From Anaeromyxobacter dehalogenans 2CP-C (GTDB lineage: Bacteria; Myxococcota; Myxococcia; Myxococcales; Anaeromyxobacteraceae), in assembly GCF_000013385.1 (NCBI RefSeq), contig NC_007760.1, positions 2,729,001 to 2,793,000 of the forward strand: a stretch of DNA of 64,000 nt, read 5' to 3'. The translations under genes and the position numbers were made by a program. Below are positions 18,799-22,854 of the stretch, in pieces (within the stretch, counting starts at the first letter, position 1; each line of letters begins with the position of its first letter). The notes beneath the pieces are model-generated. The model ran no database searches. It was not told the DNA's origin and saw only the letters and a program-made list of their open reading frames with translations.

Positions 18799-18969
18799 TC
18801 CACCGGCCCGCGCGCGCGGCGCGGCCCACCGCGTCGCGCGCCCGCCGGGCCGCACCCCGCTCCTCCCCCCGCGCCCGTCCACGTGGCGTCCGCCGCGGAG
18901 ATCGCTTATGTTCCGGCGGTCCGCCGGTCCCGCCCCTCGACCGGCCCCCACCTTCGAAAGGACGTCGGC

Positions 18970-19248
18970 GTGGCGCGAATGGTGATGTGCAAGAAGCTCG
19001 GCCGTGAGCTGCCGGGCCTCGCCTACAAGCCCTTCCCGAACGAGCTCGGGCAGCGGATCTACGACTCGATCTCGCAGGACGCCTGGAAGCTCTGGCTCGA
19101 GCACTTCAAGATGATCCTCAACGAGTACCGCCTCTCCCCGGCGGACCCGCGGACCACCGAGATCCTCTTCCAGCAGGCCGAGCAGTTCTTCTTCGGCGAG
19201 AACGCGCAGCTCCCGCCCGACTACCGGCCCCCGCCGTCCAAGGGCTAG
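18970..19248 (+). CDS. yggX: Fe(2+)-trafficking / oxidative damage protection protein YggX
   Basis: A 92-residue YggX-family protein, almost the same length as the E. coli protein (91). Cys7 sits in the N-terminal strand, and the conserved core [20 protein letters not shown] is followed by NEYRL. Family members protect iron-sulfur clusters and assist iron traffic. GTG 18970 follows AAAGGA; an ATG 9 bases later is also possible. It is 25 bases upstream of the radical SAM gene on the same strand, a plausible pairing because that enzyme carries an iron-sulfur cluster. Confidence 0.9.
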
Positions 19249-19273: not shown

Positions 19274-20719
19274 GTGGCGCGGGAGCGCACGGTGCGGCGT
19301 CCGGGCGAGATCCTCCTCCTCTCCACGTACGAGCTCGGCCACCAGCCGCACGGGCTGGCGCTGCCGCTCGCGTTCCTGGAGCGGGCCGGCTTCGCGCCCG
19401 CCTGCCTCGACCTCGCGGTCGAGGCGCTCGACCCGGCCCGCGTCGCCGCCGCGCGCCTCGTCGCGATCTCCGTCCCCATGCACACCGCCCTGCGCCTCGG
19501 GCTCGAGGCGGCGGCGCGCGTGCGGGCGCTGAACCCCTCGGCGGCGATCGCCTTCCACGGCCTGTACGCGCCGCTCCACGCCGGCCTGCTGCTCGAGGCC
19601 GGCGCGAGCGCCGTGCTCGGCGGCGAGTGCGAGGAGCAGCTCGTCGCGCTGGCGGCCGCGCTCGAGCGCGGCGAGGACCTCGCCCGCTTCGTCCAGCGCG
19701 GCGGCGGCGCCGCGCCGACGGCCCGGCTCGACTACCCCATCCCGAACCGTGGCGCGCTGCCGGCGCTGTCGCGCTACGCGCGCCTGGCGGCGGCCGACGG
19801 GACGCTCCGGGTGGCCGGCTACGCCGAGGCGACCCGCGGGTGCAAGCACCTCTGCCGCCACTGCCCCATCCCGCCCGTGTACCGCGGCCGCTTCGTGGCG
19901 GTGCCGGTCGAGACGGTGGTCGAGGACGTGGCGCGACAGGTGGCGCTCGGCGCCGCGCACGTCACCTTCGGCGACCCCGACTTCTTGAACGGCCCCACCC
20001 ACGCGCTCCGCGTCGCGCGCGCGGTGCACGCCCGCTTCCCCGCGCTCACGTTCGACTTCACCGCCAAGGTCTCGCACCTGGTGGCGCACGCGGACGCGGT
20101 CGCCGAGCTGGCGCGGCTCGGCGCGGTGTTCGTCACCTCCGCGGTCGAGTCGCTGTCGGATCGCGTGCTGGCGGCGCTCGACAAGGGCCACGACCGCGCC
20201 GACGCGATCGCCGCGTTCCGCGCCTGCGCCGCGGCCGGCGTGCCGCTCCGCCCGACGCTGATGCCGTTCACGCCCTGGGGGACGCTGGACGACCTGGTGG
20301 ACCTGCTGGACGTGCTCGATGCGGAGGGGATGCTCCCCAACCTCGATCCGGTGCAGCTCTCCATCCGCCTGCTCGTGCCGCCCGGCTCGCTGCTGGAGGG
20401 CGCGCCCGGGATCGCGTTCGAGGGGCTCGACGCGGCCGCGCTCACCTGGCGCTGGCGCCACGCCGATCCGCGGATGGACGCGCTGCAGCCGCGCATCGCC
20501 GGCGAGGTGGAGGCCGGCGCCGCGCGCGAGGCGCCGCCGCTCGAGACCATCGAGCGGGTGCGCGCGCTGGTGCGCGCCGCGGCCGGGTTGCCGCACCGCC
20601 ACGTGCGCGTGCTCGCCCCCGACCAGCGGCGCGTGCCGCGCCTCACCGAGAGCTGGTTCTGTTGAGCAGAGCCAACTGCCCGTCAGGTGGACGGGCTCTC
20701 CGAAGACCCCCGACGCTGA
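19274..20719 (+). CDS. B12-binding-like radical SAM protein, predicted selenoprotein with Cys-Sec-Ala-Glu-Pro tail
   Basis: Residues about 10-115 resemble a cobalamin-binding Rossmann domain (ILLLSTYELGHQPHGLALPL, then GECEEQL). The radical SAM core carries Cys190-x3-Cys194-x2-Cys197 (TRGCKHLCRHCP) for the 4Fe-4S cluster. The frame appears to stop at TGA 20663-20665 after ESWFC. Read as selenocysteine (residue 464) it continues U-A-E-P and 14 further residues to TGA 20717, giving 481 residues. A SECIS-like hairpin follows. I recall a named family with CUAEP or CCAEP tails; this was not checked here. GTG 19274 is used; GTG 19292 has a better ribosome site (GGGAG). Substrate unknown. If Sec is not inserted, the protein ends at 20665. 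Confidence 0.85.
20668..20699 (+). promoter_or_regulatory. Bacterial SECIS-like hairpin downstream of the in-frame TGA
   Basis: A perfect 7-bp stem (20678-20684 with 20690-20696) closes the loop AGGTG (20685-20689), and AGA (20668-20670) can pair with TCT (20697-20699) below an internal loop. The GGU of the loop starts 20 bases after the TGA, within the spacing of known bacterial SECIS elements, which SelB reads through a GGU-containing loop. Confidence 0.8.
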
Positions 20720-20735: not shown

Positions 20736-21536
20736 TCAGCGGGCGCCGCGCGCCGCCCAGGCCCGCGCGCGGAGCGCGATCGTGCCGTCCGCCGACACCG
20801 GCAGCGTCGCCCGGAACGCCTCGCGCAGCGCCGCGCGGCGATCCTCCGGGAGCGACGCGGCGTAGGCCGGCGCCGGACCCTGGCCGGCCAGGAACGGCGC
20901 CCAGCACTCGGCGAAGTCGCGGAAGACCGTGGGCACCTCCACCGCCCGCACCTCGACGCTCCCGAGGCCTGCGCCCTCGAGCAGGGCGGCGAGCGGCCCG
21001 GGCGCGCAGAGGGGGAAGCGCACCGCCTCGTCGAGCGCTGCGGCCGCCGGGTCGAGCGCGCGCGCCGCGTCCCAGAACCGGCGGACGTACTCCATGCCGG
21101 CGGCGTAGTCCCAGACGTACAGCGCCACCGCCGCGCCCGGCCGCGCGGCCCGGGTCAGCTCCGCCACCATGCGCGCCGGCTCGGCGACGAAGTTGAGGAC
21201 CAGGCCCGACACCACCGCGTCGAACGCGCCGTCGCGGACCGGGAGCGCCTGCGCGTCCGCGGCAGCGAAGGCGCGGCGGGCGCCGGTGCGGGCGCGCGCG
21301 TGCGCGACGAAGCCCATCGACCGGTCGAGGCCCACGACCACCTCCGGCGCCGCCAGCGCCGCGACCGCGTCGCCGAGCGCGCCGGTGCCGCAGCCCGCGT
21401 CGAGCCACCGGCCGTGCGGCGCCGCCCCCAGCCACGCGACCACCTCCCGCGCCACCAGCCGGCTCCAGCGGCCGATGTACGCGTCGTAGCCGGCCCCGAC
21501 GTCCCAGACGTCGTGCGCTGCCGGATCCGCGGGCAT
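20736..21536 (-). CDS. Class I SAM-dependent methyltransferase
   Basis: A 266-residue methyltransferase of the type I Rossmann fold. Motif I is WLDAGCGTGALGDAV (about 44-58), the acidic end of strand 2 is VVGLDRSMG, and the segment DAQALPVRDGAFDAVVSGLV marks motifs II-III. The C-terminal half, from about 160, is helical and Ala-rich. ATG 21536 follows GGGGAGG. It is convergent with the radical SAM gene, whose Sec-extended end is 16 bases from this stop. The acceptor substrate cannot be told. Confidence 0.85.
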   Translation of the reverse strand: MPADPAAHDVWDVGAGYDAYIGRWSRLVAREVVAWLGAAPHGRWLDAGCGTGALGDAVAALAAPEVVVGLDRSMGFVAHARARTGARRAFAAADAQALPVRDGAFDAVVSGLVLNFVAEPARMVAELTRAARPGAAVALYVWDYAAGMEYVRRFWDAARALDPAAAALDEAVRFPLCAPGPLAALLEGAGLGSVEVRAVEVPTVFRDFAECWAPFLAGQGPAPAYAASLPEDRRAALREAFRATLPVSADGTIALRARAWAARGAR

Positions 21537-21579: not shown

Positions 21580-22854
21580 TCAGGCGACCGGCAGCGGGGC
21601 CCGGATGTCGAAGGAGAGCCGGCCGTGCGCCTCCCGGAGGGTGCGCTCCACCTCCTCCGGCGTCTCCCCCTTCGCGAACAGGAAGCCGAGGTAGCTGTCG
21701 CCCTCGGGGAGCGGCACCACCTCGCGCCCCTCGGGCACGGTGATGACGACGTCCTCGACCCCGGGCACCGCCCGCGCCTGCTCCACGCCGCGGACCCCGT
21801 GGAGGACGCCGCGCCGCGGGATGGGCAGCATCATCACGCCGGAGGCGCGCGCCTCGCGCCGGAGCTGCTCGAGCGGCAGGCCCATGGCGTGCGCGACCAG
21901 CACCTCCTCCAGCGTGAGCCCGGCGCCGAAGCGCAGCGTGCGCGAGCAGAGGCCGCCGATGGAGCGCGCCGCGATCTCCAGCACCACCGGGCCGTCCGGC
22001 GACAGGCGCAGCTCCGCGTGCACCGGCCCCTCGCGCAGGCCGAGCGCCGCCGCGCCGGCCGCGGTGATGCGCTCCACCTCGGCGCGGAGGGCCGCCGGGT
22101 GGCGCGAGGGCGTCACGTAGATCGTCTCCTCGAAGTAGGGGCCGTCGAGCGGGTCGGGCTTGTCGAACAGCGCCAGGACCTCGAGCCGGCCGCCGCGCAG
22201 CAGCCCTTCCAGCGCCACCTCGGCGCCGGGGACGAACGCCTCCACCAGCACGCTGCCGGCCGCCTCGCGCTCGCGGGCGCGCCGCTCGACGCGGGTGTCG
22301 TGCAGGAGCCGCTGGATCCGGCGCCAGGCCGCCACGAAGCCGGCCGGATCGTCGGCGCGGATCACGCCGCGCGACGCCGAGAAGATGAGCGGCTTCAGCA
22401 CGCACGGGTACGGGGCGGCGCGGGCGGCCGCCTCCGGGTCCTCGTCGAGCGCGTGCAGCCGGAACGCGGGCACCGGCACCCCCGCGTCGCGGAGGGTGGC
22501 GCGCATGGCGTGCTTGTCGGCGGCCCGGCGGGCGGCGACGGGCGGGTTGAACGGCAGGCCCAGCTTCTCCGCGGCCAGCGCGGCGATCACCGCGGTCGGA
22601 TCGCTGCCCGGGACGATCCCGGCGATGGGGCGCGTCCGGGCCGCCTCCGCCACCTGCTCCGCCGCGTGCTCCGGCTTGCGGTAGTCGAGGGAGAGGAGAT
22701 CGGCCTCCGGGCCGAAGGTGTCCTCGATCTGGTGGCAGCGGTCGCTCCCCACCAGCAGCGGGACCCCCAGGCGGCGGGCGGCGTCGCGGAAGTCGTCGAG
22801 GCGGTAGCTCGTGGTGGGGACGAGGAGGAGCAGCGAACCGTGCGGCGTGGACAT
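21580..22854 (-). CDS. ATP-grasp domain enzyme
   Basis: A 424-residue ATP-grasp ligase of the type that joins a carboxylate to an amine or thiol through an acyl-phosphate. The pre-ATP-grasp domain (1-100) opens LLLLVPTTSYRLDDF and includes GIVPGSDPTAVIAALAAEKL. The ATP-binding half has PYPCVLKPL and a glycine/serine-rich loop (SASRGVI). The metal-binding acids lie in GPVHAELRLSPDGPVVLEIA, then RSIGG. ATG 22854 has TAAACT 8 bases upstream, so it may be leaderless. It lies between the methyltransferase and E1-alpha genes on the same strand. Substrates unknown. Confidence 0.8.
   Translation of the reverse strand: MSTPHGSLLLLVPTTSYRLDDFRDAARRLGVPLLVGSDRCHQIEDTFGPEADLLSLDYRKPEHAAEQVAEAARTRPIAGIVPGSDPTAVIAALAAEKLGLPFNPPVAARRAADKHAMRATLRDAGVPVPAFRLHALDEDPEAAARAAPYPCVLKPLIFSASRGVIRADDPAGFVAAWRRIQRLLHDTRVERRAREREAAGSVLVEAFVPGAEVALEGLLRGGRLEVLALFDKPDPLDGPYFEETIYVTPSRHPAALRAEVERITAAGAAALGLREGPVHAELRLSPDGPVVLEIAARSIGGLCSRTLRFGAGLTLEEVLVAHAMGLPLEQLRREARASGVMMLPIPRRGVLHGVRGVEQARAVPGVEDVVITVPEGREVVPLPEGDSYLGFLFAKGETPEEVERTLREAHGRLSFDIRAPLPVA

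What the first reader, a model, noticed from the sequence alone, without database searches (positions are those of the whole stretch)
19274..20719. Radical SAM gene whose apparent TGA stop encodes selenocysteine in a Cys-Sec-Ala-Glu-Pro tail
Seen: the frame ends at TGA 20663-20665 directly after TGT (Cys463). In the same frame the next codons are GCA GAG CCA, then 14 more codons to TGA 20717. Read as Sec this gives C-U-A-E-P. The extended end falls 16 bases short of the convergent methyltransferase stop and so fits exactly into the gap. Known, from recall only: a radical SAM family is named for CUAEP or CCAEP tails. Inference: automatic annotation would cut this protein at 463 residues and lose its probable redox-active Cys-Sec pair. 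The N-terminal B12-like domain and the yggX gene upstream suggest an oxygen- or iron-sensitive enzyme of unknown substrate.
Basis: partly seen in the sequence, partly recalled or inferred. Interest (0 to 1): 0.9.

Follow-up and report, generated by a model that had tools for sequence, protein, structure and literature searches.

The report
Radical SAM selenoprotein with Cys-Sec tail
In this Anaeromyxobacter-type genome a UGA codon near the end of an enzyme gene is read as the rare amino acid selenocysteine rather than as a stop, which places the gene in a protein family that NCBI has already named but whose function is unknown; it usually sits beside a gene for a peptide-bond-forming enzyme and an iron or iron-sulphur gene, which gives a testable lead to what it makes.

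Summary
The finding is real. UGA 20663-20665 in the radical SAM gene at 19274(or 19292)-20719 is decoded as selenocysteine, giving a Cys-Sec-Ala-Glu-Pro tail. Evidence: NCBIfam NF040546 (CUAEP/CCAEP-tail radical SAM (seleno)protein) matches through the UGA at 674.7 bits (cut-off 500). The genome encodes tRNA-Sec, SelA, SelB and SelD. All 17 full-length Anaeromyxobacteraceae genes keep the in-frame TGA. Codons after UGA are protein-constrained (E and P in 52 of 52 Sec genes, varied codons). A 7-bp hairpin with an AG[GU]U-type loop 19 nt after the UGA meets the bacterial SECIS model in 33 of 39 Sec genes against 2 of 52 Cys genes, with compensatory changes. Sec genes occur almost only in genomes with SelA. 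What I add: the gene pairs with an ATP-grasp amino-acid-ligase-like gene in 58 of 81 loci (nine phyla) and with yggX or nfu in about 45. Its nearest relative is the arsinothricin enzyme ArsL, whose plasmid clusters often carry an ATP-grasp gene too. Best model: ArsL-like chemistry on a soft substrate held by the Cys-Sec tail (inferred; substrate unknown).

The parts
19274..20719 (+). CUAEP-tail radical SAM selenoprotein gene, ORF read through UGA (likely start GTG 19292)
   Evidence: NF040546 674.7 bits, cut-off 500; Radical_SAM PF04055 58.3 bits; translation
19841..19864 (+). CxxxCxxC radical SAM motif (C190, C194, C197), invariant in 52 aligned members
   Evidence: sequence
20663..20665 (+). 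UGA codon for selenocysteine (residue 464 in first-reader numbering)
20648..20716 (+). C-terminal tail E-S-W-F-C-U-A-E-P-T-x-x-Q, with invariant E459, W461, C463, position 464 (C or U) and P467
20678..20696 (+). Bacterial SECIS hairpin: stem GCCCGTC (20678-20684), loop AGGTG (20685-20689), stem GACGGGC (20690-20696); loop 19 nt after the UGA, -12.7 kcal/mol
   Evidence: model as described in PMC13188914
20717..20719 (+). true stop codon TGA
18883..19248 (+). yggX-like Fe(2+) trafficking protein gene directly upstream, a recurrent neighbour
   Evidence: PF04362 117.7 bits; beside 28 of 81 loci
20736..21536 (-). class I SAM methyltransferase, convergent; not conserved next to the family outside Anaeromyxobacter
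21580..22854 (-). ATP-grasp protein with L-amino acid ligase C-terminal domain (LAL_C2), the most conserved neighbour; the ORF as called reaches 23136, the shorter start is inferred
   Evidence: PF13535 and PF18603; in 58 of 81 loci within 4 kb

Best explanation
The gene encodes a selenoprotein of the curated family NF040546. SelB with Sec-tRNA-Sec reads UGA 20663 as selenocysteine, guided by the hairpin 20678-20696, giving a radical SAM enzyme that ends in a Cys-Sec-Ala-Glu-Pro arm (decoding signature shown by comparison; incorporation not measured). Inferred mechanism: like its nearest relative ArsL, the enzyme cleaves SAM at its CxxxCxxC [4Fe-4S] cluster and attaches a SAM-derived group, probably 3-amino-3-carboxypropyl (ACP), to a soft (thiophilic) substrate held by the vicinal Cys-Sec pair. 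The neighbouring ATP-grasp ligase then probably couples the amino-acid product to another amino acid. YggX or Nfu probably supplies or protects the iron-sulphur cluster. The substrate is unknown; inorganic arsenic is not favoured. The confidence given is for the Sec-decoding and family statement; I give the ArsL-like chemistry about 0.35.
For: Family: NF040546 674.7 bits over a cut-off of 500, aligned past the UGA. Sec machinery: tRNA-Sec with anticodon TCA, selB, selA, selD, itself with an in-frame TGA. Conservation: TGA in 17 of 17 full-length Anaeromyxobacteraceae genes; AEP after UGA under protein constraint. SECIS: model met in 33 of 39 Sec genes, 2 of 52 Cys genes, about 2 of 39 in codon shuffles; stem pairing 0.954 against at most 0.731 when arms are re-dealt, with several pair types per position; Gln codon beside the loop always CAG in Sec genes, CAG or CAA in Cys genes. 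Sec type tracks SelA: 23 of 24 Sec against 9 of 23 Cys genomes. The label is clustered on the tree but needs about 12 changes. ArsL kinship: next best family, alignable through the W-H-x-D-x-R-x-D-x-L region before the tail. ATP-grasp neighbour in 58 of 81 loci and in three of four RCCLKC/ArsL plasmid loci.
Against: No mass spectrometry or 75Se data. The chemistry rests on homology to ArsL-type proteins at about 30-33% identity. The residues around H70 (M-H-T-A) differ from ArsL (L-F-D-S or L-F-D-A), so the substrate may differ. No arsR, arsM, arsN1, arsC or arsQ relative was found in the 81 loci; ArsB-like proteins occur in 5 Chloroflexota loci only. The ATP-grasp gene was not found near some members, such as Dictyobacter, Poribacteria and T. 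roseum, so the pairing is not universal.
Confidence: 0.93

Rival explanations
1. The Cys-Sec tail is a redox arm, as in mammalian thioredoxin reductase: it forms a selenenylsulphide that passes electrons to or from the active site, and does not hold the substrate.
For: A vicinal Cys-Sec pair near a C-terminus is a known redox arrangement (own knowledge). The pair is invariant as C or U at both places in all 52 aligned members, and one member has the order U-C, which fits a pair that works together.
Against: The nearest relative ArsL has a Cys tail (RCCLKC) in the corresponding place; by my recollection of Yao et al. 2024 (title seen, text not held) that tail binds arsenite.
Confidence: 0.3
2. 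The enzyme matures or modifies an iron-sulphur protein or makes an iron-related small molecule, and the chemistry is unlike ArsL's.
For: yggX lies beside 28 of 81 loci and nfu beside 17-18, largely in different lineages; GBBH-like_N and aconitase genes recur in some. The gene is found in every well-assembled genome of the genus that was sampled, which suits a housekeeping role.
Against: YggX and Nfu could merely serve the enzyme's own cluster. The ATP-grasp ligase is the more frequent partner (58 of 81).
Confidence: 0.25
3. UGA 20663 is an ordinary stop and the downstream codons are untranslated.
For: Standard annotation can stop here, as the RefSeq record of the T. roseum homologue does.
Against: Protein-level constraint on AEP after UGA, the SECIS signature with covariation, Cys at the position in relatives and the full sel gene set.
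Confidence: 0.02
4. The protein is an ArsL-type arsinothricin enzyme working on arsenite.
For: Second-best family match, 263.6 bits.
Against: Below the 450-bit cut-off, no RCCLKC tail, no arsM, arsQ, arsN1 or arsR around.
Confidence: 0.06

Closest known systems
NCBIfam NF040546 rSAM_CUAEP, CUAEP/CCAEP-tail radical SAM (seleno)protein
   Same: Full-length match well over cut-off, CxxxCxxC, W-[FY]-C-[CU]-A-E-P tail, UGA for Sec
   Different: Nothing essential; this is a member. I found no paper on the family in the library searched, and the 2026 selenoproteome review PMC13188914 does not name it.
ArsL, arsinothricin biosynthesis radical SAM protein (NF040542, RCCLKC tail)
   Same: Same overall architecture, B12-like N-terminal region, radical SAM core, short vicinal-Cys tail; an ATP-grasp neighbour in three of four plasmid loci inspected
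   Different: Tail RCCLKC with three Cys and no Sec; set among ars genes; the window protein scores 263.6 bits against a cut-off of 450
Radical SAM selenoproteins TIGR04167 and TrsS (NF045646)
   Same: Radical SAM proteins that carry Sec, listed in PMC13188914
   Different: Other families; neither appears among the NCBIfam matches of this protein
AprD4 and TsrM (solved structures)
   Same: Nearest folds: AprD4 TM-score 0.66, TsrM 0.61-0.62, by query length
   Different: 16-19% identity, different substrates, no Sec tail

Membership tests
NF040546 rSAM_CUAEP | Whole-protein score above the curated cut-off (500 bits) | tested here: met
   674.7 bits
NF040546 rSAM_CUAEP | C-terminal C-[CU]-A-E-P motif | tested here: met
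   ...ESWFCUAEP; the same motif with [AST]EP in 78 of 80 relatives, CCAAP in the other two
NF040546 rSAM_CUAEP | Radical SAM CxxxCxxC motif | tested here: met
   C190, C194, C197 invariant
Bacterial selenoprotein | selA, selB, selC and selD in the genome | tested here: met
Bacterial selenoprotein | bSECIS: 3-9 nt loop with G in the first two places (mostly followed by G or U), stem of 4 bp or more, 16-37 nt from UGA, -7.5 kcal/mol or lower | tested here: met
   7 bp, loop AGGUG, 19 nt, -12.7 kcal/mol; model from PMC13188914
Bacterial selenoprotein | Cys at the aligned position in non-Sec relatives | tested here: met
   53 Cys members
Bacterial selenoprotein | Selenium found in the protein | not testable with these tools
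   needs mass spectrometry or 75Se
NF040542 ArsL | Score above the curated cut-off (450 bits) | tested here: not met
   263.6 bits
NF040542 ArsL | RCCLKC C-terminus | tested here: not met
   WFCUAEP instead
NF040542 ArsL | arsM, arsQ, arsN1 or arsR nearby | tested here: not met
   none in the loci of 81 family members by tblastn at E below 1e-8; the window itself was not in that search, but its neighbours show none
NF040542 ArsL | Cleavage of SAM to a 3-amino-3-carboxypropyl radical | not testable with these tools
   needs purified enzyme
Cobalamin-binding radical SAM enzymes | B12-binding domain above Pfam cut-off | tested here: inconclusive
   23.1 bits, cut-off 32.1; fold resembles both B12-using and non-B12 enzymes

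The most novel reading that the evidence does not exclude
CUAEP/CCAEP enzymes are a second, widespread class of ArsL-like radical SAM enzymes. They use a Cys-Sec arm to hold a soft inorganic or thiophilic substrate, attach the 3-amino-3-carboxypropyl part of SAM to it, and pass the product to a dedicated ATP-grasp amino-acid ligase, in an undescribed pathway tied to iron or Fe-S metabolism in at least nine phyla.
Probability: 0.25. Interest if true: 0.8.

Novelty: new member of a known kind. Interest (0 to 1): 0.42.

Why it matters
Standard annotation would cut this gene short and lose its most conserved residues; the host in fact makes a radical SAM selenoprotein. The conserved partnership with an ATP-grasp ligase and with yggX or nfu turns a family of unknown function into a testable pathway. 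Natural Sec and Cys versions in relatives, with about 12 switches on the tree, make a ready set for asking what selenium adds to a radical SAM enzyme.

Tried and rejected
Papers on CUAEP or CCAEP: none in the library; the search for radical SAM, ATP-grasp and selenoprotein together also gave none, and RCCLKC gave none. The two Haft papers and Yao et al. 2024 are not held. Folding the region from the UGA as one piece favours another pairing (AGAGCC with GGCUCU); I set this aside because a ribosome at the UGA would cover AGAGCC and because the 20678-20696 hairpin is the one that covaries. The convergent methyltransferase as a pathway partner: rejected, since a relative was found beside the gene only in Anaeromyxobacter. 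Arsenic metabolism as the setting: not supported. Rfam found only one tRNA in the window; I know of no general Rfam model for this kind of SECIS, so that is no evidence against it. Distances between the tail and the Fe-S cluster in the predicted model could not be measured, as coordinates are not exposed.

Full report
Observation. The frame 19274-20665 encodes 463 residues ending in Cys and is followed in frame by TGA, GCA GAG CCA and 14 more codons to TGA 20717-20719. The extended gene stops 16 bases before the end of the convergent methyltransferase ORF (20736-21536). The start is more likely GTG 19292, which has a GGGAG stretch at 19281-19285 and matches the N-termini of relatives.

Family. 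NCBIfam NF040546, 'CUAEP/CCAEP-tail radical SAM (seleno)protein', matches residues 13-473 at 674.7 bits against a cut-off of 500. Pfam finds the radical SAM core; the B12-binding domain stays below cut-off. The AlphaFold model is confident (mean pLDDT 93.4) and most like AprD4 and TsrM. The family is therefore already recognised. I found no paper on it in the library searched, and a 2026 review of prokaryotic selenoproteins (PMC13188914) does not name it.

Host machinery. The window lies in a 5,013,479-base single-contig genome whose nearest named relative by this protein is Anaeromyxobacter sp. PSR-1 (95% identity). It has a tRNA-Sec with anticodon TCA, selB (315.3 bits with its neighbouring pieces, cut-off 242.25), selA (514.7 bits) and selD (380 bits, itself with an in-frame TGA in the motif GAGUACK).

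Relatives. The 80 loci from genome contigs give 78 tails that fit W-[FY]-[CU]-[CU]-[AST]-E-P, and two with CCAAP. Of 81 rows in the tree, the window included, 28 carry Sec and 53 Cys. All 17 full-length genes found in the family Anaeromyxobacteraceae carry the in-frame TGA, and so do all 14 found in 150 genomes of the class of L087 (13 tails read). On a tree built without the tail, the Sec/Cys label needs 12 changes against 23.5 in shuffles; starred branches force at least 4. SelA over cut-off was found in 23 of 24 Sec-type genomes and 9 of 23 Cys-type genomes, two Sec-type genomes with weak or fragmentary matches being set aside (Fisher p = 3e-5). The one Sec-type genome without SelA, that of L081, has tRNA-Sec. 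Species are related and many genomes are incomplete, so this p-value is indicative only.

Selection after the UGA. In 52 Sec-type genes the second and third codons after UGA encode Glu and Pro in all 52, and the first encodes Ala in 48, Ser in 3 and Thr in 1, with four Ala, two Glu and four Pro codons in use. Some of these genes were found by a motif that includes AEP, so the figure is somewhat biased; the whole-profile searches give the same picture. This is the mark of translation past the UGA.

SECIS. The window hairpin is GCCCGUC-AGGUG-GACGGGC, 19 nt after the UGA, -12.7 kcal/mol. It meets the published bSECIS model (PMC13188914). That model is met by 33 of 39 distinct Sec-type genes and 2 of 52 Cys-type genes, and by 2.0 of 39 on average when codons downstream of AEP are shuffled. 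Twenty-five distinct stems pair at 95.4% of positions, against a maximum of 73.1% in 2000 re-dealings of the arms, with G-C, C-G, A-U and U-A exchanges; the register was chosen for best pairing, which favours the structure a little. In two Anaeromyxobacter relatives (L009/L096 and L109) the hairpin is shifted by about 6 nt while the AGUU loop is kept, which points to selection on RNA. The Gln codon beside the loop is CAG in 37 of 37 Sec genes, but CAA in 15 of 46 Cys genes.

Annotation loss. The RefSeq CDS WP_012643191.1 of Thermomicrobium roseum (NC_011961.1) bears the CUAEP/CCAEP name yet ends at ...TESWFC, followed by UGA GCG GAG CCG CTC.

Neighbourhood. Within 4 kb, a relative of the window's ATP-grasp protein (PF13535 with LAL_C2, an L-amino acid ligase domain) lies beside 58 of 81 loci in nine named phyla; yggX lies beside 28 and an nfu-like gene beside 17-18, largely in different lineages. 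DUF169 recurs in Nitrospirota and is fused to the radical SAM protein in L039. In L009, L010, L011 and L013 the ATP-grasp gene is kept on the opposite strand as in the window. The methyltransferase was found only in L009 besides the window. I did not compute a formal chance level, but a given single-copy gene should rarely fall within 4 kb in many phyla.

Relation to ArsL. ArsL (NF040542) is the next family, below its cut-off. Plasmid-borne RCCLKC-tail proteins align over about 400 residues at 30-33% identity and end in a vicinal-Cys tail shortly after the shared W-H-x-D-x-R-x-D-x-L region. Three of four inspected RCCLKC loci (Alicyclobacillus, Priestia, Pantoea) also carry an ATP-grasp gene among ars genes; the Pseudomonas arsQ-arsL-arsM locus does not. 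These ATP-grasp proteins are distant relatives of the CUAEP partner (about 21-32% identity). ArsL is reported to add the 3-amino-3-carboxypropyl group of SAM to arsenite (PMC8552651). From memory, and untested here, its tail binds arsenite (Yao et al. 2024). The CUAEP family lacks arsR, arsM, arsN1 and arsQ neighbours and has M-H-T-A where ArsL has L-F-D-S or L-F-D-A, so I expect a related reaction on another substrate.

Mechanism. Shown by comparison: UGA is decoded as Sec and the tail is conserved. Inferred: the Cys-Sec pair holds a soft substrate (about 0.35 together with ACP-type chemistry) or acts as a redox arm (about 0.3). Unknown: the substrate, the product and whether cobalamin is bound.

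Verdict. A correct and well-spotted selenoprotein in an already curated family, with a new and testable functional setting. Interest 0.42.

Noticed in passing
L087:9318-9398 (same gene as L137): An Anaerolineae MAG carries the UGA one codon earlier, giving Sec-Cys (W-Y-U-C-A-E-P) instead of Cys-Sec. Its genome has SelA and tRNA-Sec. It is the only such case seen, so an assembly error is not excluded.
   Followed up: partly
L048 and L051, just after the CCAAP codons: Two Cys-type genes in genomes where no SelA was found keep an 11-bp hairpin with an AGCU loop at the SECIS position. It may be a relic of a former SECIS; L028, L021, L025 and L086 show weaker or shorter traces.
   Followed up: no
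L125:5950-7386: The Thermomicrobium roseum RefSeq protein WP_012643191.1 is annotated as CUAEP/CCAEP-tail but is cut at the Cys before the UGA, and so lacks the tail.
   Followed up: yes
L039:8037-10244: The Cys-type radical SAM gene is fused in frame to a DUF169 protein through loss of the stop codon; DUF169 is the separate next gene in related Nitrospira.
   Followed up: no
[quoted passage not shown]
   Followed up: partly
G000:C1:3870998-3871924: The host's selD is itself a selenoprotein gene, with an in-frame TGA in the motif GAGUACK.
   Followed up: partly
window 20655-20673: A second potential hairpin, GGUUCUGU/GCAGAGCC, holds the UGA in its loop. Its role, if any, is unknown.
   Followed up: no
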